64,000 nucleotides of DNA from Mya arenaria (lineage: Eukaryota > Mollusca > Bivalvia > Myida > Myidae), in the NCBI RefSeq assembly GCF_026914265.1, contig NC_069122.1:36197473-36261472 (forward strand). Direction: 5' to 3'. The position numbers and the translations under genes were made by a program. The notes beneath the pieces are model-generated. The model had not been told where the DNA came from and searched no databases. It saw only the letters and a program-made list of their open reading frames with translations. Below are positions 1,859-64,000 of the stretch, piece by piece. Numbering within the stretch: position 1 is the first letter of the stretch; each line of letters begins with the position of its first letter.

Positions 1859-1861
1859 TTA

Positions 1862-14767: not shown

Positions 14768-17700
14768 TCACACTCCTCACACTGGGGGTGCTCGAATTAA
14801 CCCACAACGGTCTCTTGGGTGAGGGGCGGACACTTGTTGCACTAGACCACTCTCACCCTGGTGGTTCTCGAATTAACCCACGACCTCCTGGATAAGGGGC
14901 GGACACTTGTTGCACTACACCACTCTAACCCTGGTGGTGCTCGAATTAACCCACAACCTCCTGGATAGGAGGCGGACACTTGTTGCACTAGACAACTCTC
15001 ACCCTGGTGGTTCTCGAATTAACCCACGACCTCCTGGATAAGGGGCGGACACTTGTTGCACCACACCATTCTAACCCTGGTGGTGCTCGAATTAACCCAC
15101 GACCTCCTGGATAAGGGGCGGACACTTGTTGCACTAGACCACTCTCACTCTGGTGGTGCTCGAACTAACCCACGACCTCCTGGATAAGGGGCGGACACTG
15201 GTGACACTACACCACGCTCACCCTGGTGGTGCTCGAATTAACCCACGACCTCCTGGATAAGGGGCGGACACTGGTGACATTACACCACTCTCACCCTGGC
15301 AGTGCACGAACTAACCCACGACATCTTGGTGAGGGCAGACACCTGTGGCACTACACCACTCTCACCCTGGTGGTGCTCGAACTAACCCACAACCTCCTGG
15401 ATAAGGGGCGGACACTGGTGACACTACACCACTCTCACCCTGGTGGTGCTAGAATTAACCGACGACCTCCTGGATAAGGGGTGGACACCTGTGACACTAG
15501 ACCACTCTCACCCTGATGGTGCTCGAATTAACCCACAACCTCCTGGAAAAGGGGCAGACACTTGTGGCACTACACCACTGTCACCCTGGTGGTGCTCGAA
15601 TTAACCCACGACCTCCTGGATAAGGGGCGAACACCTGTGGCACTAGACCACTATCACCCTGGTGTTGCTCGAATTAACCCACGACCTCCTGGATAGGGGG
15701 CGGACACTTGTGGAACTAGACCTCTCTCACCCTGGTGGTGCTCGAATTAACCCACGACCTCCTGGATAAGGGGTAGACACTTGTGGCACTACACCACTCT
15801 CAACCTGGTGGTGCTCGAATTAACCCACAACCTCCCGGATAAGGGGCAGTCACCTTGCACTACACCACTCTCACCCTGGTGGTGCTCGAATTAACCCACA
15901 ACCTCCTGGATAAGGGGCGGTCACCTGTGGCGCTACACCACTCTCACCCTGGTGGTGCTCGAATTAACCCACGACCTCCTGGATAAGGGGCAGACACTTG
16001 TTGCACTACACCACTCTCACCCTGGTGGTGCTCGAATTAACCCACAACCTCCTGGATAGGGGGCAGACACCTGTTGCACTACACCACTCTCACCATGGTG
16101 GTGCTCGAATTAACCCACAACCTCCTGGATAAGGGGCGGACACCTGTTGCACTACACCTTTCTCACCCTGGTGGTGCTCGAATTAACCCACAACCTCCCG
16201 GATAAGGGGCGAACACTTGTTGCACTAGACCTCTCTCAACCTGGTGGTGCTCGAACTAACCCACGACCTCCTGGATAAGGGGCGGACACCTGTGGCACTA
16301 GACCTCTCTCACCCTGGTTGTGCTCGAATTAACCCACGACCTCCTGCGGCGCTAGACCACTATCACCCTTCCAGTGCTCGAATTTACCCACGACCTCCTG
16401 GATAGGGGGCGGACACTTGCGGCGCTAGACCACTATTATCCTTCAGGTGCTCGAATTAACCTACGTCCTCCTGGATAGGGGGGCGGACACTTGCGGCATT
16501 AGACCTCTCTCACCATTCCGGTGCTCGAATTAACCCACGACCTCCTGGATAGGGGGCGGACATTTGCGGCGCTAGACCACTATTATCCTTCCGGTGCTCG
16601 AATTAACCCACGACCTTCTGGATAGGGGGGCGGACACTTGCGGCATTAGACCTCTCTCACCCTTCCGGTGCTCGAATTAACCCACGACCTCCTGGATAGG
16701 GGGCGGACACTTGCGGCACTACACCACTATCACCCTGGTGGTGCTCGAATTAACCCACGACCTCCTGGATAAGGGGCAGGCACTTGCGGCGCTAGACCAC
16801 TATCACCCTTCCGGTGCTCTAATTAACCCACGACCTCCTGGATAGGGGGCGGACACTTGCGGCACTAGACCACTATCACCCTTCCGGTGCTCGAATTAAC
16901 CCACGACCTCCTGGATAGGGGGCGGACACTTGCGGCACTAGACCACTATCACCTTTCCGGTGCTCGAATTAACCAATGACCTCCTGGATAAGGGGCAGAC
17001 ACTTGCGGCGCTAGACCACTATCACACTTCTGGGTCAAATTAACCCACGACCTCCTGGATAGGGGGCGGACACTTGTGACACTGGAGCACTCTCACCCTG
17101 GTGGTGCTCAAATTAACCCACAACCTCCTGGATAAGTGGCAGACACTTGTGGCACTACACCACTCTCACCCTGGTGGTGCTCGAATTAACCCACAACCTC
17201 CTGGATAAGGGGCAGACACCTTTGACAGTGGACCACTTTCACCATTGTGGTGCTCGAATTAACCCACGACCTCCTGGATAAGGGGCGGACACCTGTGACA
17301 CTTGATCACTTTCACCCTGGTGGTGCTCGAATTAACCCACAACCTCCTGGATAAGAGGCGGACACTTGCGGCACTACACCACTATCACCCTGGTGGTGCT
17401 CGAATTAACCCACGACCTCCTGGATAAGGGGCAGGCACTTGCGGCGCTAGACCACTATCACACTTCCGGTGCTCGAATTAACCCACGACCTCCTGGATAA
17501 GGGACAGACACTTGCGGCACTACAACACTATAACCCTTCCGGTGCTCGAAATAACCTACAACCTCCTGGATAAGGGACGGACACTTGCGGCAATAGACCT
17601 CTCTCACCCTTCCGGTGCTCGAATTAACCCACAACCTCCTGGATAGGGGGCGGACACTTGCGGCACTAGACCACTATCACCCTTCCGGTGCTCTAATTAA

Positions 17701-18911
17701 CCCACGACCTCCTGGATAGGGGGCGGACACTTGCGGCACTAGACCACTATCACCTTTCCGGTGCTCGAATTAACCCACGACCTCCTGGATAGGGGGCGGA
17801 CACTTGCGGCACTAGACCACTATCACCTTTCCGGTGCTCGAATTAACCCACGACCTCCTGGATAAGGGGCAGACACTTGCGGCGCTAGACCACTATCACA
17901 CTTCTGGGTCAAATTAACCCACGACCTCCTGGATAGGGGGCGGACACTTGTGACACTGGAGCACTCTCACCCTGGTGGTGCTCAATTAACCCACAACCTC
18001 CTGGATAAGGGGCAGACACTTGTGGCACTACACCACTCTCACCCTGGTGGTGCTCGAATTAACCCACAATCTCCTGGATAAGGGGCAGACACCTTTGACA
18101 GTGGACCACTTTCACCATGGTGGTGCTCGAATTAACCCACGACCTCCTGGATAAGGGGCGGACACCTGTGACACTTGATCACTTTCACCCTGGTGGTGCT
18201 CGAATTAACCCACAACCTCTTGGATAAGAGGCGGACACTTGCGGCACTACACCACTATCACCCTGGTGGTGCTCGAATTAACCCACGACCTCCTGGATAA
18301 GGGGCAGGCACTTGCGGCGCTAGACCACTATCACACTTCCGGTGCTCGAATTAACCCACGACCTCCTGGATAAGGGACAGACACTTGCGGCACTACACCA
18401 CTATAACCCTTCCAGTGCTCGAAGTAACCCACAACCTCCTGGATAAGGGACGGACACTTGTTGCACTAGACCTCTCTCACCCTTCTGGCGCTGGAATTAA
18501 CCCACGACCTCGTGGATAAGGGGCGGACACTTGCGGCACTAGACCTCTCTCACCCTTCCGGCGCTCGAATTAACCCACAACCTCGTGGATAAGGGGCGGA
18601 CACTTGTTGCACTAGACCTCTCTCACCCTTCCGGCGCTCAAATTATCCCACGACCTCGTGGATAAGGGGCGGACACTTGTTGCACTAGACCTTTCTCACC
18701 CTTCCGGCGCTTGAATTAACCCACGACCTCGTGGATAAGGGGCGGAGACTTGCGGCACTTGACCTCTCTCACCCATACGGCGCTCGAATTAACCCACGAC
18801 CTCGTTGATAAGGGGCGGACACTTGTTGCACTAGACCTCTCTCACCCTTCCGGCGCTCGAATTAACACACAACCTAGTGTTTAAGCGCCGACACTTGCGG
18901 CACTAGACCAA
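14768..18911. repeat. 73-bp satellite array, about 57 monomers
   Basis: Head-to-tail monomers, each with CTCGAATTAACCCACGACC, CTGGATAAGGGGCGGACAC and CACTAGACCACTCTCACC; successive units are 73 bp apart (e.g. 14867, 14940, 15013, 15086). The array is GC-richer than its AT-rich flanks. Two main variants are GGTGGTGCTCG (mostly left half) and CTTCCGGTGCTCG (mostly right half), the latter about 1-2 bp shorter. A block of about 874 bp (12 monomers) beginning near 17030 recurs near 17904 with the same private changes, so part of the array has higher-order duplication. On the minus strand the unit contains TGGTCTAGTG and GGAGGTCGTGGGTTAATTCGA, resembling tRNA box A and T-arm sequence. The open frames inside simply translate the repeat. 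Confidence 0.95.
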
Positions 18912-24496: not shown

Positions 24497-24775
24497 ACTT
24501 TTGTAGTACTGATGTTGCTGTTATTGTTGCTGTTGCAACGGTGACATTTTTGTTGTTTGAGCTTCTGTAGTTGTTGTTGTTGCAAAGGTAGCATTGTTGA
24601 TATTTCATCATGTGGCACTACTGTAGTACTGTCAACGTTGTTGTTGTTGTTGCAACAGTAGCATTGTTGTTGTTTGTGCTTCTGCAGTTGTAGTTGTTGT
24701 TGTTGCAATGGAAGTACTGTTGTTGTTTGTGCTTCTGCAGTTGTAGTTGTTGTTGTTGCAATGGAAGCGCTGTAG
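24497..24775 (-). repeat. CAA/CAG-rich minisatellite
   Basis: Minus strand: (CAA/CAG)n blocks alternating with units such as CTGCAGAAGCACAAACAACA and CATGATGAAATA-CA. Two or three imperfect longer units of 54 bp and more can be aligned. Gln/Asn-rich frames across it (24397-24868) are compositional and have no splice context. It lies just 3' of the gene A stop codon. Confidence 0.7.
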
Positions 24776-25176
24776 TTTTTTTGTTTTAAAAACGCTTTTG
24801 CAACTTATGTTTTTGCAACAACTTTTTACAAAAATATGTGAGTTTTTTCCAATAACATTTTCATTCAAGTTAAATAATTCACATCTTAAACATGACTGTT
24901 GAATAAAATGTTAAAACCAACTTTGTCATAAGCACTCTTGAAGATTTGCATCCGTTTCAGTGCTATCTTAAGGAAGTTTTTATCTTCATTTTCCAATACA
25001 GAACAATATGATGAAGTGCTTCTTAATATCTCCTATATATCACTGACTATTTTGTCAGAGGGAAGCCAACTAAAAGCCTAGTCTAAATGACGCGGAATTA
25101 ATTGGATTTTACCCATCGATTGGAAATTATGAATATGAACAAGCTAAATATTAACCACCATCATAATCATAGTACA

Positions 25177-28100
25177 TCAACTACTAGAGTTATCATCACT
25201 GCGATCATTATTTTTTTCACTCTTTCCATGAATGGCACCATTACTGTCAACAACGTCAATTTCAACAGTGCTGCTGTAGCTAGGTGGTGGCTGTTTTTCT
25301 ATTTTACTGTAGGGCGGAGGAAATCGTGGCTGTGAGTTGATAGAACTTCCTGTGAAATAAATGTCAGATAAAAATGGTAATTTAGATCTATAACTTATAA
25401 GTTTTTCTCACTTGTATGTTATACATGTTTGACCAAAGTTAAATAAATACTATGGATGGCCAACCATAGCTATAAAAGTGATTGCCACTGGTACTCATCT
25501 GCCAATTCTCCTCAGTCAAAAAGGGGCATTATTTGACAGTTATTACAGCCAGAGTTATGGGCCTTGCTACCAATTTAAAGTGCTTTGGCTTTGGCAACAA
25601 GTATACTAAGTTTCAGTCGAACACTTTAAATGAATTTTTGTGTAATGACAAATATTATATAACAAAGTTTTTGCACAATATAAAAAACCCTTAAAAATAA
25701 CAGACTTAAAAAATATATTGATTTTTTTCCATCAATTTACAGCGAAGATCAATCAAGGAAAAAATAAATTTCAATAAAACATATATTATTAAGACAACAT
25801 TTCTTTTTTTATACTAACCTGATCCCAGAAAGTATGGCGGGGGTCCCAGATGTGGGCATCCTGTGTTGTCACCCATGTACGGGGGTGGGGCTGTGACTAC
25901 AGAATCAGGGATAATGACCGAGGGGGCCGATGTCACACTGTCCCCTGAAGAACAGAGAACAGGAATTAGATAATTACAATTGAAAAAGAAGGTTAAACTA
26001 CACTATCCAAAAGTTCATGATGTTTAAACAGGCTTTTTAAAAAAAAAAATATTATAAAAATGCCATCATGTTAACTTTATGCATTCTCTGTGAGGCAGCA
26101 AAGATCGCCACAGGAAATTAAAAGGCGCTATCTTGTATATCACATGATTGCATAGAAATTGGCTACCAAGCTTAAGCAACACACCTCAGGTAATGCCAAA
26201 AATGCAAGCAAGTGCCAAGATGCTTCCATTTTTTTACATCTTTACTATCACTCAAATTAAATATGCACCAGAAATGCACATGACTATAATTACTTACTTC
26301 TTACTGTTAACAAGGCAATTGTATACATATATGTCTATTTTGTCTTCTGTATTTTTTAGTAAGAGTTATTATGATATTTTTTTTATTCTTGGCAGTTACA
26401 CATATTCACCTATTTATTTATGATGTGTTTGTCTGTTGTTTACGTCATATTACATGGAATATAAGTGCAGAAAGTACCTGGTACATTACACTTTGAAACT
26501 ATGAAACTAAAAGTTATATCAAAATTTGTGTCATACAAGCATAATGTTTATTATCCAAGGTTAACAACCTTTTAAGCACAAGTGCCAGTGACCTTAATCA
26601 TACTTAATCTAATTAAAAATGACAATTTAATTGGTACTTAATGTGTTTGTTACCTACAAAAATGACACCTTCAGAATAGTTTTATACAACACAAGATCAT
26701 ATCTTGCTTTAAAAAAGAGCACTGTTCAGGAAATGCTAACACCCCTCTGTTGTTTTTTTAATGAAAAAGGGGTATAACTCAACAATTGTTAAAGTCAGAA
26801 TTGCGGACCTTACTATATATGTGTACCAAGTTCTATTTGATACCCTACCATTAAGGTAGTTTACACAAAACTAATATAAAAAGTTTGGTATCATATCATT
26901 TGCACATAGAGAGCTACATTTTACACATCCTTATTTATTAAGAACAAATACTAAAATAATAAAATACATCATAGTATTCTAATTCTTATAAACATAACAT
27001 TTCTACTTAAAAGTATACACTTTATATAGTAAAAATGGAAATCCATATTTTTACATGTTCTGCGTAATAACACGTAATTGTTGAATTCCAGTGTCATTCT
27101 GGTATCCCAGAATACATCATATGCTGTGGGATCATATGCTGTGGGGAATATACCTCAGGTTTCCACTCAGAAACAAAAACTAAGTTAAGTAACAGCTAGA
27201 TATTCAATAAATGTAACATTTATTACAAGTCATGCATAGTGGCTATATGATCATTAGAATGCTGCATAGCTTAAAATTCAATGTAAATTATTCATGAACC
27301 ATTTAACTTGACACTTTAAATATCTGTATGTAGGTATTCTTGAGGAATGAACACATCTATACAAATAATCTTTAAGGCGTAAATTACCCTTTCAATATTA
27401 TACATCTGATATCATCTTTATTCTAATACACAAGAATATTTACGATGCATGGTATTAATAGCTGTTACGTTTTTTTTTTCATGATTTGTCAACAACTTGA
27501 TATATTTCCAAACCTATGTGACCTTGACATTTTCATCTCCTCTGTGTTTCAAAAGAGTCCTAGCAGTGATTCATAAATTTGTTACAATAGATACTTATAT
27601 CCCTTATTAAAGGTTAATATTCAACTATACCCCCAGCAGAGCTATTGAAAAAGTATCTTCTTACTTTTGTAAGCCGACCTTGCACGAGAATTTCGAGTAA
27701 TCCCAATACATTGTATTTCGAAAGGCCATGATAATAATCTAATATTTATCTTTCGGAAAAATATTTTTGTTTATCGATTTATAAATCTGTATTTATTTAT
27801 TTATTAATGTATTTATTTGCTCACTAATATATGCAATACACTTATCATCGTATAAGTCAGATACAGTTACTCGTTTTTTCTTCAAAAGTGTCCTCTTGCA
27901 GACGTAAGAAATTGTTTCGCTAAGACGAACACTGATTTTGTCCTAGGCTTCCAAAATTGGTGTTCGTCCAAGCGAAACGGCTTCTTATGTCAGTAAGAGG
28001 ACACTTTTGAAGAAAAACTGTATCTATTACTTATTGGTGGGTTTTTTACTGATTTATAATATGTATAGGAATAAATATTCAAAAACCGGGTACCGGTAAA

Positions 28101-31100
28101 TGACCAAAACTAGATTAAATTATAGCAGCTCATATTTTTCCTCTTACTTTTTGAAATCAGATATGTGAGTTGTCCTATTTCTCAAAAAAAGGTTATTTAT
28201 CTTTTTATTTTCTGGCTTAATTTTTACAGTTTCCTTTTTCTGTACGACAAACATATAAACCCTTTCAAATGATACCGGAACAATATGATGTCCCCAGGCA
28301 TCCGACATTCTAATGTATGTGTACAGAACAGCTTAAGTTCTATGAATGACTGTGGAAATCAGGGAGCTGTTTCATTAATTTCATGAATGAATATTAGTTG
28401 TTACTAAAAAAAGTTATCTTAATGCTTTGTAAACATCACAAAAGGCAATAAATCAGTTTGTTTTTCCCTTGACTTGGTGTTCATTTTCAATGCTGGCTAA
28501 ATTTCAATTCACACAAATATGCAGCAATATAATTTCAATTCACGACTAAAATAGACAATGATCTTTATTAAAACTGCCTCAGAAGTCTAGTTTATGGCAA
28601 ATTTACCTGTCAGCTGTTTATATCTTCTTCCAGATTTTGACCTTCTGTTTGACTTTTACCTTTGATCCTGACCTGTTCTGTGGTTGCCATGGTGATTTCT
28701 CAATTTGTATTTAAGCTACATGACTATGGTGCATGCATTTGGTGTTATAAATGTAACCATTCTAATACCAATATACCTGTCAGTTGCCTGTATCTCCTTC
28801 CTGATCTTGACCGTCTGTGTGACCTTGATCTTTGTTCCTGAGCTGACCTGTTGTTGCCATAGTGATTTCTCAGCCAATAGAAAGCCACAAATGCAGAGAG
28901 GATCAGAACAAGAATGCATAACCTGTAAATGGAACATTAAATGGTTTAAAGCAAGTTGAAAAAAAAAATCTGCCAGAACTAAAACTGCTAAAAATGTATA
29001 ATTATTGCGATTGATACAACATGACAATGAACTCATATTATGTTTTATACTAGTATGCAGAGTTCAACCTTGATGGGGCATCCCCCTGCCCTTTCCTGGC
29101 ACCCTGCTGCTGCCTTTTTATACTACTCCCAGCTGTGCCCTTTTGTTTGACAGGGTCAAAACAGTAATATGTATGATTTTGACACTAAAGTAAAGATAAC
29201 AGCTTAGGTATTCATAACAAACTATTAATATTGAAAGTAATTACAACACATACACAATAAGAATTGGACATTGTCCCATGCTAGTTCCCCTTTAAGGCTC
29301 CATCAATGGGCATCAAAGTGCCTTTCTGACCTAGCACCCTGCCTTTTTCAAATCCTGGCTGGTGTACTGATGCTACTATGCATCTGCTACTTCATGGCTT
29401 TAAGGGGGCAAGATATATTTAAAGGCTGAGAAGATCATTGGAAGCCTGGTCAGACATGTGTTCTTCTGTTTGCAAAGCATTTAATAACAACACCGGTCAA
29501 AATCCAGATGATTGCTTTTAAAACAAATTTAGTTTCGTAAACATCAAGAGACCACCAATATAGGCAGAAAAATTGTCACTTCGTTGACAACACCACTAAA
29601 TAAAAAGTCTGCCAGACTGGTCTGAAACTGAATTTTAAAGCATTATTTTGGGTGTGCCACTTATGTGGCATTTTTGGTAGCCAAGTTGCGGTGGCTTCAA
29701 GCATAACATCAAACGTGAGGCTTAAATGTTGAGTGTGACTGTTTTTTGCAGTATGAACTTTAACAGTGCTTAATTGCAATGTGAACATGCTCTACTTAAG
29801 TGGTTTATAGGTCCGTGACAGTAGTAATTATTTCATTGCATTTCTATGCAAGCCAGTCTGTTTAGTGAAAAAGATACAGTAAAACCTCCATGAATTTTCA
29901 TATAAAACAGTACATTTAAATTTTTATACCATTATAATTCAAATTAAATAAAACTGAAATTACGTAATAAGCCTTTTTATATTTTTCAATATCTAGTACA
30001 AATTTCAAACTAAACTTGAAGTCCTATGTCCTTTACAATTGGTAGCATTGAAGTGGTAAAAAAGATTAAATATCAAGGTCACAATGCATCAATCTCAAAC
30101 ACTGATATATAAGATGAAGTTATTATATTTACAAGCTGAGTGTTTGATATTAAATCCCTGTACTCATACATATTAAAGCCATACATTTAACTGTCAGTAA
30201 ATAAGATTTGAAAATACTTAAACCATTTTAGTATTTTAAGCTTGGACCAATGTCAAATTGAGGAAAATATAACCTTCTTACTTCAAAACAACTTAGATAA
30301 AAGTAACAAGGAACAAGAAATAAAATTTATGATTGCACTAAAGTTCAATAAAAACCAGAAATGTTTCACAGCACGTTGACAGAGGCAACAACAACGATAA
30401 ATTCTAAAGTTATATACAGCCGAAACCGGTTGGCTTGAACTCGCTTGGCTCGAATTCCTCGTTGGCTCGAACTATATGAAAGAACCAATTTCTTTATACT
30501 GAAGGTAAACTTTCCCGCTTGGCTCGAATTTTCCGAGGCTCGAGGTATAATTTCGCCAGTCCCTAGGAGTTTGAGTGAACAGGGTTCGGATGCATAAAGG
30601 CTATGTTGACAGCTTAATGTTTTTTCTCTAACATCTAAGTATGCTAAAAATCTTTACTCAGCTAAACTGCTACAGCTTGTAGAATTAAACCTATTTATTT
30701 AAAGTGCTACTCGTATTTATACTCAATATAACAAACATAAATTTTGAGTGACCAACCTTAAAATACCCTACATGTACTTACTAAGTAGTGCATTTATGGA
30801 AAATAATTAATACCGGTAGTTGAAAACGCAAAAATATTAAATGACTGGGGGCCGACCTAAAAGATTTATGGTGATCAACAATCGTTTCATAAGGTAGAAA
30901 TACTGTGTTTTCTGCACCTCTCTTTCAAATTAAACATGGTATCCTTCAAAAGAACTATTGTTTTCTATATTTGCTTATAATAAGCAGTACCATAATCAAT
31001 ACAACTGTTTTAATTTAAAATTATTTGGAAGTAAGAGTGCATCTTTAACCTTCAGAGAGACATAAGCTATTGTTACATAAATTTTACCCACCAAAAGACC

Positions 31101-32174
31101 TAAAGTTTGTAGTATAAACCTTCATCTTTGCCACATATCTTTGTCATTAGCTCTTACACAAGTCACACACCTATAAACTATATAATGGTTAATATGGGTC
31201 GTGCACAAATATCTTATAAATCCAAAAAACTCACCAAAAATACCACAGCTTGTAGAATTCATCTATATTTTCACAACATTTGTCGCCACAGCAATACTGG
31301 AAAGCACTGCAGCTGAAAATGTAAATCATTTAGCATTTATAATTATGACAATTATGTGTGTTATCAGGTAATTGACATGTATGGACAAAATATTAGCAGT
31401 TCTTATTCTGTCTCAGTAAAGAGCAAAGCTGTTATGTAAAGGTACAGTACATGTAGATGTCTGTCTGCCTGTGGAGAGAGAGAGGTAGTGGGTGGTAGGC
31501 TTTGTGTAACAACGTTACTGTCATGATTCAGGAGAAAACAGCTTTAAAGCAATCATCAGTATAAAGCTTCAAAGATTTTTAAACCACATATGAAAAATGC
31601 ACACTATTTTATTTTTTTTAAATTAGTAAGAAAATCAATATTTTTTTTTTTTTTTAACCAATAAATTTGTGGTCTGGAAAGGTGCATTATAAGTGTATTC
31701 TATTATTCTTTTCTTTGATAATGACATAAAAAAGAAACTTGGATGAGTTTAGATGGGGCACGCGCGGGATGTGTCCCCCTTTAAATCCGCTAGTTTTTTA
31801 CATGTATTTTATTTTTTTTAAATGGAACATAAAAATTTCTGAGTTGCATTCATACCCTCTAATTAAAATTCCATGTAGGCTCACATCAAAGGGTTTGACA
31901 TAAATCTGTTAAGTTCAATATCTTAATACAAAAATATTATATAACAATCAAATTTACTAAATTTATCATTTATATAGATATTAAATTCATCATTTATATG
32001 TCACTATATATACTATAACTATCATCAATATATATGTAACAAGTAATTACAGGAGACACTTACTAGAAGTGGGAGGACTTTCCAAAGCCTGACTTGTACC
32101 AACAGTATTTACACTCTGTCTGGAAAAAAATGAAAAGGAAAAATCTATTTATATTTCAACTGCACCATCATCAC

Positions 32175-32236
<62 letters not shown>

Positions 32237-34245
32237 CCATCATCAATAATCAATAATCATCATTGATCATCATCAGCAGCAGCAGCAGCATCATAAAATA
32301 TCCCCGTCCTGCCATCTCCACTGCGACTGTCATCAGCACTTTGACCACCATCCTCATCATCATCACCATGCAAGCAGCATCAACATCTCATTTTCAACAT
32401 TTCATAACAAATTTAGAAAATAATTATTAATACCTTGAAAGAAGAGCACAGGGTTTTACTATCCATTTTAGAAGTCATTTGATTTTCAAAACATATAAAT
32501 GTTACAATTCGCAAGCACTGGATATGTTTATCATTTATTTATACGCAATATATTTATTATATACAGTACAATTCTCACAACCCTAGGTTATATGCAAAGA
32601 CACACTTTTGTTTCCAAAGAACAAGGTTTTATCTTGTAGACTTAAACATTTTAGGTCATGAACAAGTGTTAAGTAAATAAAACACACTGTAACTCTTAAA
32701 TGTAAACTTGAGTAACATCAACTAATAATTGTCAAGATGTAATCTATCTATTTATGTAGATGTTGAAATGCTACAATAAATTCCTACTTTCACTTTGCAT
32801 GTGGTGAACATGGGTTAATTGAATTGATTTTTGGAACTTACTCATCCATTGATGATCAGATTCCGTAGGATCCCACTCACGCATTTAGGCCAGTTTTTAT
32901 TTTTAAATATATATTACATGGACATTTTAAAAAAATATTGCTTTAATAATAAATTGAATCATAATATAAATATGAATAAGAAGATGACTCTCTTACTCAT
33001 ATAAATTTGATTATTTATTTTTTAAAAAGCAACTTTTTGGGAAAATCCCTTATTAGGCATTAACAAAGTTACAGAAATCCTGCATGATAAAGAAAATTGT
33101 GCACAATTTCTGTATTGGTCAGGTACCTGGAAATGGAGGCTTTTTATAATTTTAGAAACACTGAATATTTTTGAATGAAATTTCACAGGTATAATCTATT
33201 AGTATGATAAGATAATGTATCCTTATTTTAAAAACATAAATTTCATGTGCCAAACATAATCAGTTAACCCCACTGAAATGAAAGTGTACATCACCAATAA
33301 TTCACCTGATTTAGATAATGATAATAATTCAAAAAAGGTCTAACAACATTTTTTTTGATTAAAACCAAAACATTTCATATATTTATATTTTCTATAAAAT
33401 TCAACATGGTGCTCTGTTAAAACCCTTATTTTGGGCTGAAACATTTTCTTGTCTGTTGAGTGGTTAAAAAAGATAATTTTCATCTGGAATAAACATGCAC
33501 ATCGTGGTGCAATTTTAACAATGCTGATAAACTGCTCATAAAAATTTCTGAAAAAAATATTGGTTTTCCTTTATTGAAGCTTCCTTTGAATACAAACTAT
33601 TATAAATATGACAAACATCATAATGGAATTGCTAACCATGGGTTTTAAAGAGTGAGCGACTAATTGGAACAGACGTAAGAGTGGTTCCTTAGCCAGTAAA
33701 TCTTTAAAAGTTTCTACTTTGAACCGTGTTAAGTCGGTGTTTTTGTTCCCAAGGTTAAGTAATGAAAAGCAGCAATTCAGATACAAACTATGCTGCATGT
33801 GCAGCTGGTAATGATTTATGTACATGTATGAAGTACTTTTTAATCGCAACTTGTAATAGCTTCTCACTTGTTTATACTTAAATCTTGGACCAATAATACA
33901 TCCTACTCCCAGCTAAAATGAACCTGCCTCTTATAAAATATGTTTTTATCAATTGATTCATGAAACATGCAAAACCATTATTGTGTTATAAAAGTTTAAA
34001 TGCTTCATACAGAGGACATGCATAAATAACTGCTATAGAATAGGTCTCATTACAGAGTTTACGTGATCATGTTTATTTCTTAGCAGGCTAATTTACGTTT
34101 TTGTGCACATTGAATCATGACATTGTGCACATAATCGACGGTAATGAACGTTTCTAGCCCTATGAGGACCATGCAACAACATGCAAACATTATTACTTAC
34201 AATTTCTATCAATAAAATCACAAGAAATATCAGTAAGGAGGCCAT
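25177..34245 (-). CDS. Gene A: WBP1/VOPP1-like single-pass membrane protein with PPxY tail
   Basis: Six exons on the minus strand: 34245-34201, 32119-32064, 31312-31235, 28922-28777, 25944-25819, 25349-25177. All introns are GT-AG and the phases agree (0, 2, 2, 1, 1), giving 207 aa. Residues 1-15 are a hydrophobic signal peptide (MASLLIFLVILLIEI). Residues 16-60 are a Cys-rich ectodomain with KYCWY, QYCCGDKCC and KLWYFW, the pattern of VOPP1 and WBP1/WBP1L. A membrane helix follows at about 58-77, then an Arg/Ser-rich stretch (91-103), YRQL (104-107), and a tail with PPxY motifs at 128-131, 143-146, 161-164 and 172-175. PPxY motifs bind WW domains (NEDD4-type ligases, YAP, WWOX); VOPP1 is endolysosomal in mammals. 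The exact role here is inferred. Gene B starts 341 bp away on the other strand. WBP1L or VOPP1 orthology cannot be decided by eye. Confidence 0.85.
27860..28024. mobile_element. Short palindromic MITE in intron of gene A
   Basis: GATACAGTTACTCG...TTCTTCAAAAGTGTCCTCTT at the left is mirrored by AAGAGGACACTTTTGAAGAA...ACTGTATC at the right, continuing inward with GACGTAAGAA / TTCTTATGTC and GTTTCGCTAAGACGAACAC / GTGTTCGTCCAAGCGAAAC. It is almost entirely palindromic with a centre of about 35 bp. It lies between exons 4 and 5 of gene A. Confidence 0.75.
30410..30600. repeat. TTGGCTCGAA-rich repeat fragment
   Basis: Contains several copies of (C/T)TTGGCTCGAA within about 120 bp in intron 3 of gene A, plus an AGTTTGAGTGAACAGGGTTCG end. 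It looks like a remnant of a DNA transposon terminus. No coding capacity; the family was not identified. Confidence 0.4.
30805..30965 (+). repeat. Dispersed repeat, copy 2
   Basis: Same blocks and order as 10715-10935. Located in intron 3 of gene A. Confidence 0.6.
32164..32246 (+). repeat. (CAT)n microsatellite
   Basis: Long CAT run with few interruptions, followed by a short (CAG)n at about 32273-32290. Located in intron 1 of gene A, just upstream of exon 2. Confidence 0.95.
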
Positions 34246-34585
34246 GGTTGTCACAAATATCTGATGACTTTGAAAAAAATTCCTTCACAATTTGCAGTGC
34301 TGTCTGCTATAATGTCAACAAACATTACGAACCGAGCTTCTCCGAAATCATTTATTTTCTGTTGTTGCTTTTTACTCCCCTGCATTTCAGAAGTATTCGT
34401 GGTGAAAAACATTTAAAAAATAGTATTTTTTCGCAATATTTACTTTTATGAATGTCAATATGTCGTTTAAATGAAATACTGTTTGAAATATATGCATATA
34501 GTACATGTGAAAAAAGTTGTTATTTAAAATTAAAGAGGGAGCATAAAGAAACAGCCAAAAAAGGTCAGAGGTCGCAGAAATAAAA
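34246..34585. promoter_or_regulatory. Shared 5' region of divergent genes A and B
   Basis: The 340 bp between the two start codons must hold both 5' UTRs and the promoters, unless non-coding first exons lie further out. The sequence is AT-rich, with no clear CpG island and no convincing TATA box placed for either side. The gene B start has A at -3 and G at +4 (AAAAATGG), a good initiation context. Bidirectional activity is inferred from geometry alone. Confidence 0.5.
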
Positions 34586-37500
34586 ATGGCGAGAACTAAA
34601 TTTGACGTCGCAGTAATTGGAGTATTTTTTAGTTTTTTTGACAGTGTGAGTTCCTTTTTTTAACAATTAACGTTATAGAGTAATTCCACATACTATTTTT
34701 CTTTCAGTGTTTGTATATGTTCTGGTATTGTTTCGTTTAAACGTTAAATACGCATGTCCATACTGATCATTTTATCAAAACAAAAACAAGAACATTGTTC
34801 TGTAACATAATTACAATTCAGGAATCAATGTTCTAATAAATTTATCATCTAATTCTATGACATTATAGCAAGTTTTTATAGACTTTGAATAGCCATTAAT
34901 ACTACACTGTGGGCTCTCAACGTATTTTCAGGAAATAATAACTAAATAAGCTGGACATAGCTGAACATTTCATTAATTATATGATATCCCTAAAATTGGG
35001 AAAGAATGCCTTCACAAGCATGAGCAAAGTGTTTCAACTATTTAATGCTACATGTAGATAAGACATCACAGATGACAATGCAGAGATAGAACTCGCATAA
35101 TAATCATACCAATACTCCAACAATGACAAAAAACTTTTTGTCATTATAAGTCATAAGAAGTCTGACAACATTGGTTACTTTGGAAACCTGTGTTAACTTA
35201 CCCTGTTAAGTACGTAAATTTCGAGTTTTAAGAATCTGTAAGATAATGTTGGAATACCTTTCCATTCAAAGACAGAAGTTCCAGAGAAAATTAATATTTG
35301 CCTTAAAAAAATACAGTGTTTCGCAATTGTCAATGATCATTAATTTATATCATGATTTTGTAACAATAAGATAAAAAAAAAAAAACATCAAAATTACACA
35401 CTTTGTCTCATATTATATTGTTTCTACCACAGGTCTGAAAAGATGGCAAATGGGCATTTATGTTTTGTTAGTTAATGCCCGAATATATCTTAGTGACTAC
35501 ATGTAGCTGATTATGCTTGCACAACTGATAAATAACCCATCAGTTTATCCAAATGAGTTCATTTCAAAACCTAGGCTTCTAATAAAGTGTTCTCATAAGG
35601 GATTCATAAAGCGATCCCATTGGTAGACTTGAGCCCTAGCAGTTAATGGCAATACTACTAATTGTGATAATCAATTACTGTGTAAGTATCGCACAATATT
35701 TTGAGACCCTGTTATATTAGAATTTTGTCATGAACATTGGATTTTTTTAAAGGATAGTTTCAAATGTTCCAAACAAAAACTTTATCATTTGGAACATGTT
35801 ATTTGATTCCCAAATCGGTACTGGTACAGCGTGAAAAGTACACATTGCCAACAAATTGAGCAATCAAAATTTTCATTACCATTTAGTTCAAGTGTTTAGA
35901 AACACAAAAATAACTGTTTAATGTTAAAATACTTTTTTATTCCTTGTCAATGTTTATTTAGCAACAATGGCTTTGAAAAAGGAAGTTTTCAAAGAAATAT
36001 TGTTGGACCGGCGAATTTTCATTTTTGACCAACAAAATATTGGAGCCTGTCGGTCTGAATGACAGACCCTTTTTCGATGTCTTTTGCAATGTCTGTTAGT
36101 GTCATATTTAGTAGAGCGAAAAATAGCTTTTTCTGTTTGACTTGATTGTAGATTATTTTCTTTTAAGTAATGGTATCAAACATAGCAATTGATTAACATC
36201 TTGAGCATGTCATGAGTAACATAAAATTTAATAATTTGTACATGTAAAAGGTTATGCAAATAATTGTTTTTTTTATACAGCAAAACCTTCATGTACAAAT
36301 TGATTGATACCTTTTTCGGCCATTTGTTCCGATTGGGATTCTCGGTTAAAGCATATTTATAATGTCTATAAAAGATCATAAAAACATGCTAAATTACTCT
36401 AAATGTTATTTCATATCAGTTCCTTGCACAAAAAGTAAATATCCAACAAACAATTAATATTTTAAGGTGTTATTTTCATTCCTTACTGTCAAAACATAAC
36501 GGGTTGTACATGAAACAGACGACAGTTTTGTAACTATGCAGTTCACATAATGCAAACTGATGTCTGTTTCATTTGAAGCTTTGTCTACCGAATTAAATTA
36601 AAGAGGTAAAACCTGTTTTTTTAGAAGATTTAATGCTTATTTTGTGCAAAATGCTTTTGCAATTACATGGTAAATATGAATATAACCCTATGTTATTGTA
36701 TATAATCGATTTGAAGCATCAAATACTTATCTTACATAATTTTAATATATAAAAGCCCCTGTTCTTTGACAAACCAGTTTAGATGTTTAGGAATTAGAAG
36801 AATCCTGTTCTGCAAATTGTTGCCAACGGCAAGGTTTTTATATTTATTTGTTTGTATACTTTCAGGTCCTGTGCTACTATTGTGATAATGATAAGTAAGT
36901 TTTTTTACTTTTTCAAAGAAAAACAGACAACATTTGTCAACAACTGACTATAGAATTGGTATGGTCGGCTCCTATTTTGTTGGTAGGGTCGGGTAACCTG
37001 AACCAAATGTATTTTTTTTAGTCTTTAGCCGATACATTTCTTTTACTGAATACTCGGAAAATGCAGTATGTGATGTCATTGGAGAAAATGAATCCTGTTG
37101 AGGTCTACATGTTTACAACTACATGTAAAACAAATTTTACGGTCAAATGTTTGTTTGTTGTTAACATGAACACAACTGACAACATGACTCAATTTCACAG
37201 GCAACATCACATTATTATGATTTAAAACCAAGAGATAGGATTACAAAACAAACTTTTAACATTATATCTTACATTAAATAATGAACCTTTTCTAATATAT
37301 GTAAATCTAGCGAAGATTGCTTGCTTATGAAGCAAGAAACCTCGCAAAAATGAACCTTTTCCTCAAAAACGTTAACAATTTTGTTTAGGGTATTGTTTTT
37401 ATCTTTTTAAGGTGAACTAGTTTTTCATGAACTCATATATTTAAATACAAGAAGCACAGCTGAAAGAATTGCCTCATATCTTGTTAGAAAGGCTGCAGAT

Positions 37501-39832
37501 TGCAAGTCACTTACTGCGTCCATGGAATTTTCAGGGCAGTGAATTTTAAATGTTAACAACTAAGTTTTGAACATTATCGTCCCATTGTCAGAAATGAGTT
37601 ATTGTTGCAAGATCAGTTTATAAACTTTGCTGTTGTAAGACAAATATTTACCATTTACCGTACATTCACAGGTGTTTGGAGGACCAGTTCTGTTGTGGAG
37701 AAAATATCTGCTGTGTCTCATACAAAGTCTGGGAACTCTGGTATTTCTGGTAAGTGTAATGCATCAATGCTGATCATTTGCATCAATGCTGATAATTGGT
37801 CTGGGGTTTTAGCTAGAAAGTTTTAGAAGGGGGCTCCCCCACCTTTTCTTTGTTCCCCCTAGTATCTTATACTAAAGTTTAAAGACTGTAAAACTTTCTT
37901 CTTCTAATCTTCTATTGGTGTTTCTTCTATTGGCGTTTATGATGGTCTGCCCGCATATGTATGGCTGCATTATGGTTTGATCTCTCAATGTATTCAATAA
38001 CCAATTTAGATCTAACTTTAGTCTATCTGTTGAATCTGATCACTTTGATTGATCTGTTCAATATAATTCTTATCCTTACCCTTAGACATGCCTCAGTGAT
38101 TCCATTCAATCTATTGGCCAGTTATTTTTACAGTCCAATCAAAACACTCAGATTCTACTCTTAAACTAAAAGAAGATCTCAGCTGGTTATTGAATACAGC
38201 CCCTGTTGTTAACCATATAAGGATATTCTCATTGATCAGCTGTAGTATATTTCACCCTTTACTGCTTCACATAGTTAAGGCCCTCAAAGTTGATAAATCC
38301 GGATGTCTTTTTATTTATCAATGGTCAGGTCTTACTGCCAATGAATGAATGACTCTAAAACCAGTCATTATCCATAAATATATATTAATATAATTATGTT
38401 GTCAGAGCCTCACGAAGTGGGCCTCACTTATGACTAAATCCCTAAATGTGGCAAGCCCTACTAGGAAGTCTGTGTATAAGAAGGGATGCCACTTTTTCGC
38501 TTTTGAAAATTTCAGCTTATTTCCACTTATAATTATTGCTTTTGATCTGATCTATACAAAAATTGATATTTTGTATCTATACAAAAAAATGATTTTTTTG
38601 TATACAATGTTTAAGGGATACAATGCACTCCTATTTTGTACTGGTTCCCTTCTTTATACAAATTTGTGTTGGCATCCAATGGATTATGGAACTGGTGTAT
38701 CTAACAGTGAAATCTATATATATATACACAGTTCCATTAGATATTGAACGAATCCCATAAGGGCAAAAAAGGTAAAATTTTTGAAAAGTTGTTTATTATT
38801 CTGTTCCTCAGGTTGGGTATCCTGTTTTGCGTATTCCTGTTGTCCCTATGTGGATGTTTCTGGCGGGAGAGACAGCGTGCATACTGGTTCCACTCTCCAA
38901 CACAGCATCCATACAGGCAGCTGAATCCCGAGGATGATTTAAAATATAAGGTAAGTTTCGCTGATTAAAGATCCACTTAAACACGAGAGATTCTCTATTT
39001 AAAGTAAAATTAATGTCTTTTAACGAAAAAATCTGTAAGCCTGTGCATTCTGTGCAATGAATTTACCAGGAACTAAAAGATAAGAAATTGTAAATAAGCA
39101 TTACTGTCAAGTTAAATAACATTGGATTGACCAAATGATGGTAAATTGAAATAAACTGCGGAGTTTGACTTTTCTTTAAACGGCAATTCAAGGGTATAGT
39201 CATACACTTGGTCCTGTGGACTGGCACTGACTGCCATAGCATATTCGTCTGCATGGCAACCTGTATTATTCTTAGGCCTATATGGTATTCTTGGCTCTGA
39301 TTAGCTTGTTTCAACAGATCAGGATGAACTCTAGCTTTCAGTTCCGGACTATCCTTGGGAAGTTTGTTTTTGCTAGATATTTGCATAAAAATAGTAAGAA
39401 GTACCTTAAATTACATATTTTTAAAAGGCTGCAGACACATTGTCTTATTTCACCAGGGGTCTTAGTTCTTAACCCTCTCTTGGACCTGAATCCCTCATAC
39501 TTACTTTACAGAATTGGGATTTTTGTTCTGTTTTCATCAATTTACTGTAGATAAAGTGTGTGCTAGATGGAAGCTCAGCAATATCATATAGTTCTGACTG
39601 GACTGTTAATGTTTGTTGATTTTATGGCATTCAAATCATTGCACCCTTATTGACAAATTTATGTTTATGTTTGCTTTAGGATGACTACCATGCAAAGAAG
39701 GATAGATCTCCCGAGTTTTACGGTCCTTCCCAGCCATCATGGTACAGCCAGGGGACTGCTTCCCCGTCCACAGTTTACAGTGACAATGAGCAGCTCTATG
39801 ATACAGACACAAGCAGGAAACCAGACTACTAG
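34586..39832 (+). CDS. Gene B: WBP1/VOPP1-like single-pass membrane protein without PPxY
   Basis: Five exons: 34586-34645, 36866-36894, 37672-37749, 38812-38950, 39680-39832. All introns are GT-AG and the phases agree (0, 2, 2, 0), giving 152 aa. Residues 1-20 are a signal peptide with core [11 protein letters not shown]. Residues 21-56 form a compact Cys-rich ectodomain: [15 protein letters not shown] and ELWYFW, matching the CCG-x-x-CC...WYFW signature of VOPP1/WBP1. The helix spans about 53-72 ([17 protein letters not shown]), then RERQR. The tail has YRQL (90-93) at the same place as gene A, HPYRQLNP, and several tyrosines ([17 protein letters not shown]), but no PPxY, so WW binding as in WBP1 is not expected. 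The 78-bp third exon matches gene A in length and phase, which points to duplication. The open frame over exon 4 from 38744 is only partly coding; exon 3 is read in another frame. Confidence 0.85.
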
Positions 39833-40130
39833 CACTTCCTGTAGACGATTCCTGTGAAATGGTACCTGAAATTCATCTCAAGGAATTTAGACTGTTTTGT
39901 GAAAGTGCTTTGTATTTCCTGATGTTTGGTGCCAAGTTTCATCTCATCAAGTTATAAGGTGTATAAGCAGGAAACCAGGTTACTAGAACTTCCTGTATAT
40001 GCAGTCTGGTTCCTGGTTTTCATCTCATAAAGGATCTTTAATGAAACCAGACTGGTCTTTGGTGCCCAAAATTTGCCATCAAATTTATACCGTTTTTAAG
40101 CAGGAAACCAGTCTATAAACACTTCCTGTA
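39811..40130 (+). repeat. Coding end of gene B repeated in its 3' UTR
   Basis: AAGCAGGAAACCAG-CTA-TAG-ACTTCCTGTA occurs at 39811-39843 (covering the last seven codons and stop), 39965-39997 and 40098-40130. The copies lie in longer imperfect repeats that include TTCTGGTACCTG-(G)TTTCAT and CATAAAGGAT. AATAAA at 40171 and 40436 are possible polyadenylation signals after the array. Confidence 0.75.
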
Positions 40131-43100
40131 GTACGTGTACAGTACATGTATTCTGGTACCTGGCTTTCATAATAAAGGATATTGGAGGAAACCAGACTAA
40201 AGCTTACCAATTCTTTCAGGCGTTTAGTGTCCAGTTTTATTCCATAAGCGTCATAAATGGATTCTTTGATAAGCAGTATCACTCAACTTGTTAAGGGAAA
40301 TATTTGTTATATTATTACACAAGTGTGAATTTAAAACATAGTTTCTGGCTACGGAAGTTTTTCTTAACTCGTATACTACTGAGTTCTGGTTTATTTTACA
40401 TATTGTTCTATTTAGACACACTGATCTTGAAATGAAATAAATCCATGTTTGTGTACATTCAATTGGCATGCAGACAAAGCCCAATCAGGGGTATATAAAC
40501 TTGTAGATCTGTTAAAATGGAATTATTGTCGTACACATTTAAATAAAAAAAATGCAAAAGCTTTGAAAAGGGCTACAGAACTGGTCATTTATTAAAATCT
40601 TTAATATTTTTTGTAACTTCAATTGAGTTAATTTCCTGAGATAATTTTTGCCAAAGTCAAAAAAAAGAGATGAATTTTTGTTGTTGTTTTTTAATAACTT
40701 ACAGTCTGTATTGTGAATGCTGTCAGTGAAAATAAGGTATTTTAAAAAAAAATCGAGCAATATATAAAATATATGATTTTAACAATCAGTTAAATAAGTA
40801 CAAAAATGATAGGAAGTGACTTATGTAAGGGATTGACCTACAGTGTAAATGTATGTTTAATGTTTAAGGAAATGACTTATGTAGGAAAATGACTTATAAT
40901 GTATTAAAGGAAACAATTTTTGTTAGGAAATGATTCAAGACCTTTAATGCATACTTAAGCCAGTTGCCATAAGTGGTGAATCATGTATTATATGATCTTA
41001 TAAAATGTGGGCATTTGCAATTTGTCATCTTGTTAATGGCTTATGTACATGTATATATGTTTAATGAAAGTCCATATGTTATATTATATAAGAACCGGTG
41101 CCTAATATTTACTTTGGGGTTCTTACGATTGTTGTATGTTTTTAAATAACTGTCCCTGTATATAATTGTAGGCCTGAGTGAATACAGTCTGCCCAAGATA
41201 ACATTAAAAGTGGGAATAGTCGGTTTATTAAAAAAAGGTGAACCAAAATTTAAAGCAGAATGTATCTTCATGATGTTGTTTTACTATGATTTGCCAAATT
41301 TTCTGGTTTGGACTAATTTGATTAGAGTTCTGTTAGCACAAAATCATCCTGGGATGACTGCATGTCATAAATTCTATTCATAGTGTGTAATTGATATCTG
41401 TTATTAATATTGATTTTCGTTGTTTATCTCTAATTTGTCCATGCATTATGTTTAAAAAATATATGTAAATACATTATATGATAGATTTCACAGACAGATT
41501 TGAATGTTTTCAATTGACTTGCAACAAAATTTGTTGTAAAAAATTATGTTCCATTGTTGAATTCAGAAAGATTTAATCTCGCTGAATTTTAAAATGAAAA
41601 AAATGGGTATTATTATTGTCATATAGCTTTGGAAAACGTTGTGGCTTCTCATTATAAATGTTGCCTTCGTTGGAATCATGCACAATTTTTATGTAAGCCA
41701 TAGCTTAGGCGAAGCTCAAACACAGGCACTGAGACCCTGGGTCACCAATATCAGAAGTTCTCCAGTTACTTAATCTTGATCTAAATTAATGGTAGGCCAG
41801 AACACATTCATTCAGGCATAAAAAGGAAGAATACATAATGGAGTATGCCAGGGTTCCCTTAGTGTGATTTGGGGAGGGATAGTGGGTCTAGATTAAATCC
41901 AGCTTCAACCCTGTTAACTTATCAATCAAACTTGGAAATCATTTAAACAGTAATCATTCACAATAACCAATGCATACATAACATAGAGTAATGATAGTAA
42001 CTGTATGTGTAAGAAGTCACATGCTTTGGCTAAGAAAAACTTAAAGCAGAAGAGTGTTTGTGTCCTCTCGAAGTGCTTTTGTAAACAGAACTGTCATAAC
42101 AAAATAAACTTATAGTGTTATAATTGCTTTGAATTTTCTTCATTTAAACTTCAGTTTGTCAATATTGAAAGTGTGTTGAAGTCGCTATAAGTAAAGATCT
42201 TGCCACAATGATCAAGTCATTATTAATTTTGTCCAAGTCATTTTAAATCAATATCAAATACCATTATAAATTGTCTTTTAGTTAAAATGTATTTTTGAAC
42301 ATTACATTTTTAGAAAAAAGCCTTTAAATTTGTGGTTGGCTTGGAACTGGCAGGGGCAATATTGAGACCTCTGATCTTTAAGATGAAACTGATCTTGATT
42401 TCATTGCTGAAATGTAACAGACAGGGATGCAGTTTGGCTGAATTGATGTGTAGGCCGATTTCTTTGTTGGTTTGTGGGCATGTTATTTTTAACAGCTAGA
42501 TTATTGAGAGTTGCATTTTGGTATGCATTTTCCACCAGGAAATATATTGATACAAGTACACCTATATCCTAACATTTTACTTTGGAACAGTATGGTAGAT
42601 AAATATGTATAGCATTGTTATTTTTTCATATTTACGGTTTGGATATTTGTCAGTTATATTTTCTTAGGTACTAGTATATGTAATATGTTACTTTCAATGA
42701 TGAATAGGCCAGTTGCGTATATCAGCCAATATCAGAATGTTGATGAAGTCATTTAACAGGACAAAAAAGGACAAAATATCGCATTCTCTACACAATATAG
42801 TTAGCTTGCCATACTGCAACCATTGATAGATTGTACACAGGATTGTTTGAAAAATAATGACTTGATTGGTTAATAGTTATGACTGGATATATATTGACCA
42901 ATCAATAAACATTTTGTGTTACTTTGAGTCTTTGACCAAACAAAAAACTTTATAGTTTTATACAATTGGCTGCCAGCCATTACCGTAGTATTACTGTGTT
43001 TGTATGATTTTTTTTTTTAAATATTTATTATGGAGCAACATGTATAGCTCTGTATATTGAAGAAAGCTTCACAAAAATAAGATGAATGTCAGAACATTTT

Positions 43101-56862: not shown

Positions 56863-57716
56863 ATTGTGCTTGCATATTCTCACTGTGGACAGACAAGGGT
56901 TTTGTAAGCTAAAGTCCTGACACTTTCTGTTTTTATTTTTATATTTCTTTTAATGAAGTTGAGAGTATTATTTCCATTGGTGGTAATTCTTGAAATATGA
57001 GTGTTCCAGCTGAGATCTGCTGTTATATCAACACCAAGATATTTAGCACTTGAGACTGGCTCTAGGATCTGGCCATGGAATATATATATGGGTTTCTGGT
57101 GATATGCTTATTCCTTGTTATGTGCAGATCTTGACACTTGGAGGGATTAAACTCCATATCCCAATTACTTTCCCATAATTCCAGTTGTTTGAGGTCATTT
57201 TGAAGGATAGCACAGTCAGAGGGAGAATTGATGGTAAAATAGACAGCAGTATCATTGGCAAAAAGTTGAACTTGTCATTTCATACTAGAAGGGAGGTTAT
57301 TAATATAAATTAGGAAAAACAAGGGACCCCGTACAAAGCCCTGAGGTACACCAGATGTTACGAGTACTTCTTCAGAATGATCACCATCCAAACTACTGTC
57401 TGACTTCCATGAAGGAGAAATGCCTCAGACCACTTGAGAACCTGTGGACAAACACCATAATCCTGTAGTTTGAAGAGAAGTTTAAGATGATTTACCTTGT
57501 CAAAAGCTTTGCTGAAGTCCAGGAGAATTAAGACTGTTTGATTGCCTGAGAAAGTGATTCTTACAAGATTGTCGGTCAGCTCAATAAGTTGAGATTTGCA
57601 TGAGCGCTTTTCTCGAAAACCATGTTGTAGGTCATAGAGAATATTGTGTTCGGTCAGTTGTGCAGAGAGATTTGAGGCAATAATGTGTTCTAATGATTTG
57701 CATAAAATACATGCAA

Positions 57717-58014
57717 TGCACCAGTCAATTGTATAAACCACAGCACCCCCCCCCCCCAGGTCCGGGGAATAGCGGGGACTTTTGGTCCAGCCAACCCCGG
57801 GTAAAATCCCAGCCCTGCCCCCGCCAAATGCCCCCGCACCCAGGGACCCTAGGTTAGGCCCATTCCCCGCTATATTTTGCGCAAAGACAAAACCAACGCA
57901 TTCACCTGGCACTGCAGGGCCAACCAAAAGGTAAAAACACAGCCCTTTTTCCCGGCTATCCCGGTATAGCCCCGGACCGGGGGGGGGGGGGCGTGGTAAC
58001 AACTGACCAGTGCA
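57717..58014. mobile_element. GC-rich palindromic element flanked by TGCA (copy 2)
   Basis: Inverted ends (TGCACCAGTCAATTGT at left; complement of TGCACTGGTCAGTTGT at right), C/G runs at 57747-57759 and 57979-57991, then a core with ACCCCGGGTAAAATCCC. It interrupts the second LINE between the NYRPIS and CKSLEHI motifs. It contributes the Gly/Pro-rich first half of a 232-aa minus frame (57358-58056), which is therefore not a real protein. Confidence 0.75.
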
Positions 58015-58229
58015 TAAATGAGATAGGTCGATAGTTTGCTGGGTTGCTGGAATCACCCTTTTTAATCAGTGGACATACAAAACTCTTCGTCCAGGCAACA
58101 GGGATAGAGTTTGTGGTTAGTATACATCTCAGAGGGTCACAGACATAACGGACCATGGACATTACGGACCAGATTTAGGGACATTATGGACCGTATTTAG
58201 GGACATTCTGGACCATCTTCAGAAACTTA

Positions 58230-63617: not shown

Positions 63618-64000
63618 CTGTTAGTACAAAACAGTAAAAATCGTAACAGAAAGGATAAGTAATGAACTCATCGGCCATTTTTATCGAAAACAACCTCGGG
63701 TGTATTTGGACGGTTTACATACTCAAAAAGTGGTACGTTTAAGTCCGCTGCAAGGAGATCGCGTAGTTATTTTATTTAGCAGTTAAACTTTAAGACTTAA
63801 CTCTTGGGAATCTTAATTTTGTTTGCAATAATTTACTTCACTGGCAATCAATTTAAACTTCGATAAATAAATGCAACTCTAAAACACTATATTTAATTAA
63901 TGATATAATTTAAAAAAAATACGAACTACTTCAACAGATGTACCAGCATACATCCGAGGTTGATTTCAATACAGAAGAAGTTCCGAATGGTCGTTGTGCT
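63618..64000. other. Upstream intron of gene C, up to the window edge
   Basis: An AG acceptor borders the RING exon at 63618. No N-terminal RING exon with a CxxC...CxH pattern was found before the window ends. Confidence 0.5.

What the first reader, a model, noticed from the sequence alone, without database searches (positions are those of the whole stretch)
25177..39832. Head-to-head pair of WBP1/VOPP1-like genes with matching exon structure
Seen: two complete multi-exon models on opposite strands, start codons 341 bp apart. Both have a phase-0 signal-peptide exon, a short second exon ending in phase 2, a third exon of exactly 78 bp ending in LWYFW, and a helix exon. Both ectodomains carry CCG-x-x-CC...LWYFW. 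Known: this signature marks VOPP1 and WBP1/WBP1L. Inferred: an inverted tandem duplication sharing one regulatory region. Only short coding pieces are visible as open frames, so ORF-based annotation would miss both genes.
Basis: partly seen in the sequence, partly recalled or inferred. Interest (0 to 1): 0.8.

Follow-up and report, generated by a model that had tools for sequence, protein, structure and literature searches.

The report
Divergent pair of VOPP1/WBP1-family membrane genes
Two related genes for small membrane proteins lie back to back in an animal-like genome and may share one control region; the family is known, but one partner lacks the usual docking motif and both carry an extra cysteine.

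Summary
Six minus-strand exons (34245 to 25177) and five plus-strand exons (34586 to 39832), GT-AG at nine of nine introns, give 207-aa and 152-aa proteins; the ATGs are 341 positions apart. Both pass Pfam's cut-off for WBP-1, PF11669 (E 1.1e-8, 7.1e-7), and match each other. The first three introns sit at the same places in the cysteine framework, so the genes are paralogues. The minus product is VOPP1-like with four PPxY motifs. The plus product leans weakly to WBP1 and has none, so it is filed by profile only. Both ectodomains have seven cysteines; the family is described with six. "Inverted tandem duplication" is partly supported: no exon-to-exon inverted repeat was found, and the pair is less alike than each is to its presumed human counterpart (recalled sequences), so any duplication looks old. 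The shared promoter is inferred from distance. Linkage in other animals could not be tested: relatives were sought only in prokaryotic and viral collections (none), and the genome search did not complete. A new member of a known kind, moderately interesting.

The parts
34201..34245 (-). minus gene exon 1: start codon, hydrophobic N-terminus (presumed signal peptide), ends phase 0
   Evidence: 19-residue hydropathy mean 1.99 from residue 1
32064..32119 (-). minus gene exon 2 (56 bp): TECKYCWY..., first two ectodomain cysteines, ends phase 2
31235..31312 (-). minus gene exon 3 (78 bp): C-x5-CC-x3-CC ... LWYFW
28777..28922 (-). minus gene exon 4 (146 bp): hydrophobic helix, basic stretch, YRQLT
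25819..25944 (-). minus gene exon 5 (126 bp): two PPPY motifs
25177..25349 (-). minus gene exon 6 (173 bp with TGA): one PPPY and one PPSY motif
34586..34645 (+). plus gene exon 1 (60 bp): start codon, hydrophobic N-terminus (presumed signal peptide), ends phase 0
   Evidence: hydropathy mean 1.84 from residue 8
36866..36894 (+). plus gene exon 2 (29 bp): VLCYYCDND, ends phase 2
37672..37749 (+). plus gene exon 3 (78 bp): C-x5-CC-x4-CC ... ELWYFW
38812..38950 (+). plus gene exon 4 (139 bp): hydrophobic helix, YRQL, ends phase 0
39680..39832 (+). plus gene exon 5 (153 bp with TAG): tail without [L/P]PxY
34246..34585 (.). 340 bp between the two start codons, presumed bidirectional promoter; 7 CpG, observed/expected 0.88 against 0.63 for the window
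   Evidence: promoter function is inference
28600..28702 (-). decayed tandem copy of the 3' part of minus exon 4 in the following intron (82% over 103 nt), one stop in the exon's frame, donor GT kept
   Evidence: (D4)

Best explanation
Two old paralogues with the WBP-1 (PF11669) ectodomain and helix, head to head over 340 bp. Shown: gene structure, profile membership, shared intron positions, motif content. Inferred: the minus product (VOPP1-like) is a single-pass membrane adaptor of the STMC6 kind, with its cysteine-rich domain outside or in the lumen, whose four PPxY-type motifs recruit WW-domain proteins (NEDD4-family E3 ligases, WWOX) and so steer cargo, or the recruited protein itself, towards ubiquitination and the lysosome. 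The plus product keeps ectodomain and helix but has no [L/P]PxY, so it probably cannot recruit WW proteins itself and would bind cargo, compete with, or partner the other. The short spacing would allow expression of both from one bidirectional promoter.
For: Full spliced frames with GT-AG at 9 of 9 introns. PF11669 above cut-off for 2 of 2 products. Pairwise BLASTP (low-complexity filter and composition correction off, two-sequence search space) E 1e-8, 42% over 43 aa; 0 of 1000 shuffles reach the Smith-Waterman score. Intron 1 two residues before the first Cys, intron 2 in the codon before the third Cys, intron 3 in the last W of LWYFW, in both genes. Minus tail: PPPY three times, PPSY once. 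Minus matches recalled human VOPP1 best (z 14.7; WBP1 and WBP1L 7.1); plus matches recalled WBP1 best (z 10.4; WBP1L 8.6, VOPP1 7.9). Passages seen: WBP1L (PMC6991692) and CYYR1 (PMC11399591) recruit NEDD4-family ligases through [L/P]PxY motifs; VOPP1 draws WWOX to lysosomes (PMC6125347).
Against: No transcript or protein evidence. Human comparison rows are recalled. The plus product lacks [L/P]PxY and is only 2.2 bits above the Pfam cut-off. Both have seven ectodomain cysteines where the family is described with six. The fourth introns differ in phase. The nearest AATAAA/ATTAAA on the minus strand below the minus stop codon is at 23597, about 1.6 kb away. YRQL in both tails is weak: 1593 of 10000 shuffles of the plus tail also share a 4-mer with the minus tail.
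Confidence: 0.7

Rival explanations
1. The pair arose by a local inverted tandem duplication within this animal's lineage, followed by fast divergence and loss of the PPxY motifs in the plus copy.
For: Inverted adjacency; first three introns match; a shared additional cysteine (C18 / C23) two residues after intron 1 in both. The likelihood test does not reject minus+plus as sisters (p-AU 0.31).
Against: No exon-to-exon inverted repeat among 15 pairings (the tool misses repeats below about 65% identity). Minus is much closer to recalled VOPP1 than to plus (z 14.7 against 6.9). Fourth introns differ in phase.
Confidence: 0.2
2. Adjacency is coincidental: two old paralogues brought together by rearrangement, each with its own promoter.
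For: Human counterparts are unlinked (recalled). The gap has only 7 CpG, and none of the TATAAA, CCGGAAG, ACTTCCG, GGGCGG or NRF1 patterns tried lies in 34150-34700.
Against: Two members of one small family head to head within 340 bp look unlikely by chance (inference, not computed).
Confidence: 0.2
3. One or both models are pseudogenes, or the exon choice is partly wrong, for example a missed motif-bearing last exon of the plus gene.
For: Exons were picked by motif and frame. Two minus donors rank only near the top 5% (4.98 and 5.08%). An LPVY lies at 39989 in a 35-aa plus-strand frame just past the plus stop codon.
Against: No stop within the joined frames of 11 exons. Of the four plus-strand matches to the [L/P]PxY search within 20000-47000 (LPFY 29110, LPAY 37947, LPVY 39989, and one with a stop inside at 42980) none is PPxY and none lies in the model. 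AATAAA-type signals follow at 40171 and 40436.
Confidence: 0.1

Closest known systems
VOPP1 (ECOP)
   Same: minus product: CWY near the N-terminus, C-x5-CC-x3-CC, LWYFW, single helix, PPxY tail; best match among four recalled human fragments
   Different: one more ectodomain Cys (CKYC); the recalled human fragment has six
WBP1 / WBP1L (OPAL1), PF11669
   Same: plus product: CC-x4-CC, ELWYFW, helix; PF11669 30.3 bits; best match is recalled WBP1
   Different: no [L/P]PxY, a seventh cysteine, only 152 aa; the Pfam match covers profile positions 5-47 of 102
CYYR1
   Same: architecture of signal peptide, Cys-rich domain, helix (PMC11399591 passages); its PPxY tail is shared by the minus product only
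   Different: no significant similarity: 378 and 553 of 2000 shuffles reach the score with a recalled fragment

Membership tests
Pfam PF11669 WBP-1 | whole-protein score at or above gathering 28.1 bits | tested here: met
   36.1 (minus) and 30.3 (plus) bits
STMC6 | C*C*CC*CC cysteine arrangement before the helix (passages) | tested here: met
   contained in both: minus Cys 18,21,35,41,42,46,47; plus 23,26,31,37,38,43,44
STMC6 | six cysteines (the majority of the family, passage) | tested here: not met
   seven in each ectodomain; the source says majority, so this marks a variant rather than an exclusion
STMC6 | N-terminal signal peptide | tested here: inconclusive
   hydropathy only (19-residue means 1.99 and 1.84); no signal-peptide predictor at hand
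STMC6 | single transmembrane helix at the aromatic motif | tested here: met
   best 19-residue means 2.47 (from residues 56 and 59, minus) and 2.26 (from residue 55, plus), overlapping LWYFW; hydropathy only
STMC6 / WW-binding adaptor, minus product | [L/P]PxY motifs in the tail | tested here: met
   PPPY three times, PPSY once; binding itself not testable here
STMC6 / WW-binding adaptor, plus product | [L/P]PxY motifs in the tail | tested here: not met
   none in the 152 aa; so plus is filed as a PF11669 relative and paralogue, not as a WW-binding adaptor
VOPP1 orthology (minus), WBP1 orthology (plus) | tree placement with the vertebrate genes | tested here: inconclusive
   preferred by 2.1 log units (p-AU 0.75 against 0.31 and 0.06); recalled human fragments, 71 columns
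Bidirectional gene pair | co-expression, or promoter activity both ways | not testable with these tools
   only spacing (340 bp) and CpG ratio

The most novel reading that the evidence does not exclude
The head-to-head pair is a surviving trace of the ancient duplication that founded the VOPP1 and WBP1 branches, and works as one unit: a PPxY-bearing and a PPxY-less subunit made together from one promoter, whose odd seventh ectodomain cysteines join them in a disulphide-linked heterodimer in which one chain picks cargo and the other brings the ubiquitin ligase.
Probability: 0.1. Interest if true: 0.6.

Novelty: new member of a known kind. Interest (0 to 1): 0.3.

Why it matters
It adds two gene models to a little-studied adaptor family and gives a testable case of linked VOPP1-type and WBP1-type genes. 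If the linkage and the PPxY-less partner hold across related animals, they would tell how the family split and whether its members act in pairs. As it stands it is a sound annotation rather than a surprise.

Tried and rejected
Relatives in the searchable collections: minus product, genome contigs 21 pattern matches and 0 confirmed, viral contigs 4 and 0; plus product, viral contigs 5 and 0, genome contigs 5 and 0. These hold prokaryotes and viruses, and the search wants contiguous stretches, so they say nothing about animals. Solved structures: minus product only, 2 hits at E 0.62, not meaningful. Papers: VOPP1 with Crassostrea, 0; 'overexpressed in cancer prosurvival' with mollusc, 0. Two loose searches were swamped: 16,288 and 3,379 papers, of which 15 and 3 were listed, VOPP1 occurring in none of the listed ones. 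Head-to-head with bidirectional promoter and mollusc: 3 papers, 2 listed, neither on these genes by title and start of abstract. I claim no absence in print beyond these searches. The founding paper (PubMed 22120523) is not held and was not seen. Of the four papers cited I saw only the passages printed (12 of 34, 12 of 26, 8 of 8 and 7 of 7 places) and abstract starts in the listings. A CYYR1-type identity was rejected. For the 73-bp array no RNA family was found.

Full report
Observation. The two gene models were rebuilt from the sequence and translated. Both are complete, with GT-AG at nine of nine introns and open frames of 207 and 152 codons. Start codons at 34245 (minus) and 34586 (plus) are 341 positions apart. 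The first three exons match in layout: a phase-0 first exon (45 and 60 bp), a short exon ending in phase 2 (56 and 29 bp), and a 78-bp exon that ends two bases into the last W of LWYFW. The fourth introns differ (phase 1 in minus, phase 0 in plus), and the minus gene has one more exon. The signature CC-x(2-4)-CC-x(4-14)-LW[YWF]FW, shaped on these genes, is found at 2 places in the window's six frames and at 0 in 100 order-1 Markov windows.

Family. Pfam places both in WBP-1, PF11669: minus 36.1 bits, E 1.1e-8, profile 3-101 of 102; plus 30.3 bits, E 7.1e-7, profile 5-47; gathering score 28.1. The six other families listed for the minus product are below their cut-offs; plus had no other. The two products align to each other at E 1e-8 over 43 residues (search space of two sequences, low-complexity filter and composition correction off), and 0 of 1000 shuffles reach the Smith-Waterman score, for the whole proteins (z 9.9) and for the ectodomains alone (z 6.7). 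Intron 1 lies two residues before the first ectodomain cysteine, intron 2 in the codon before the third, and intron 3 in the last W of LWYFW, in both genes. I take common descent of the two genes as close to certain.

Which branch. CYYR1 matches neither. A likelihood comparison of three trees on 71 columns prefers minus+VOPP1 with plus on the WBP1 side; minus+plus is 2.1 log units worse (p-AU 0.31) and plus+VOPP1 2.9 worse (p-AU 0.06), neither rejected at 5% by that test. The minus gene is therefore VOPP1-like with fair confidence, the plus gene WBP1-like with low confidence. As the human rows are recalled, this is a lead, not a test.

Motifs. The minus tail carries PPPY three times and PPSY once; the plus product has no [L/P]PxY. 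Each ectodomain has seven cysteines, whereas the family is described as having six, C*C*CC*CC, in most members (passages of PMC5578492; PMC6125347; PMC6991692). The first cysteine stands at the same distance from intron 1 in both genes. An odd number leaves one cysteine free for a bond between chains; that is inference. Both tails contain YRQL near the end of the helix exon, but 1593 of 10000 shuffles also share some 4-mer, so it carries little weight.

Mechanism. In passages seen, WBP1L binds NEDD4-family ligases, through its WW-binding motifs for the ligases tested, and its absence raises surface CXCR4 (PMC6991692). CYYR1 brings WWP1 to late endosomes through PPxY motifs, and the same text names WBP1, VOPP1, WBP1L and TMEM92 as the other mammalian STMC6 members (PMC11399591). 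A review reports from a meeting abstract that VOPP1 draws WWOX to lysosomes (PMC6125347). By analogy the minus product should be a WW-recruiting membrane adaptor. The plus product should not recruit WW domains by itself and may bind cargo, compete, or pair with the minus product.

Arrangement and origin. The region between the start codons is 340 bp with 30.6% G+C, 7 CpG and a CpG ratio of 0.88 against 0.63 for the window. One AAnATGGCG (YY1-like, recalled) overlaps the plus start codon at 34583; the pattern occurs once more, on the minus strand elsewhere. One AGGTCAnAGGTC (recalled as a nuclear-receptor half-site pair; the pattern was written after seeing the sequence) lies at 34562 and is the only match in the window. 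With eleven patterns tried this is weak; TATAAA, CCGGAAG, ACTTCCG, GGGCGG and NRF1 patterns had no match in 34150-34700. None of the 15 inverted pairings in 24500-41000 joins exons of the two genes; three short ones join their introns. If an inverted duplication made this pair, it is old. Conservation of the order elsewhere could not be examined: the collections searched hold prokaryotes and viruses, and the genome search did not complete.

Exon copy. A 103-nt stretch in minus intron 4 (28600-28702) is 82% like the 3' part of exon 4 and its donor. In the exon's frame it has one stop, and no copy of the helix part aligned. It is read as a decayed tandem exon copy.

Verdict. The finding is real and correctly placed in its family. 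It is a new member of a known kind; the PPxY-less partner, the seventh cysteine and the tight divergent layout are the points worth a comparative look.

Noticed in passing
28600-28702: Decayed tandem copy of the 3' part of minus exon 4, 82% identical over 103 nt, with one stop in the exon's frame and the donor kept.
   Followed up: yes
39795-40130: A 49-nt unit covering the last codons and stop of the plus gene recurs twice downstream (39949, 40082; 67% and 78% to the copy at 39949), so the end of the coding sequence lies in a small repeat array (D5).
   Followed up: partly
14771-18910: G+C-rich tandem array of a 73-bp unit, also read as 19 copies of a 219-bp unit; no Rfam match at E up to 1.
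   Followed up: partly
53440-53507: Rfam tRNA match on the minus strand, 42.3 bits, not found by ARAGORN; perhaps a tRNA-derived repeat.
   Followed up: no
1359-4120 and 57062-58065: Reverse-transcriptase fragments (RVT_1) on the minus strand: E 1.1e-15, 6.1e-8 and 1.6e-10, plus one below cut-off, among ten frames chosen by eye.
   Followed up: partly
6670-7677: 335-aa open frame on the plus strand, perhaps a LINE first ORF (recalled resemblance); eight weak Pfam families, none above its cut-off.
   Followed up: partly
27875-28017: Inverted repeat with 66-nt arms, 85% complementary, 11 nt apart, in minus intron 4 (I1).
   Followed up: no
59282-60099: Two neighbouring minus-strand frames with several hydrophobic stretches by eye, possibly exons of a multi-pass membrane protein; no Pfam match at E up to 1.
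   Followed up: partly
63317-63667: Minus-strand frame with a CPEC stretch like the end of a RING finger (recalled); no Pfam match at E up to 1.
   Followed up: partly
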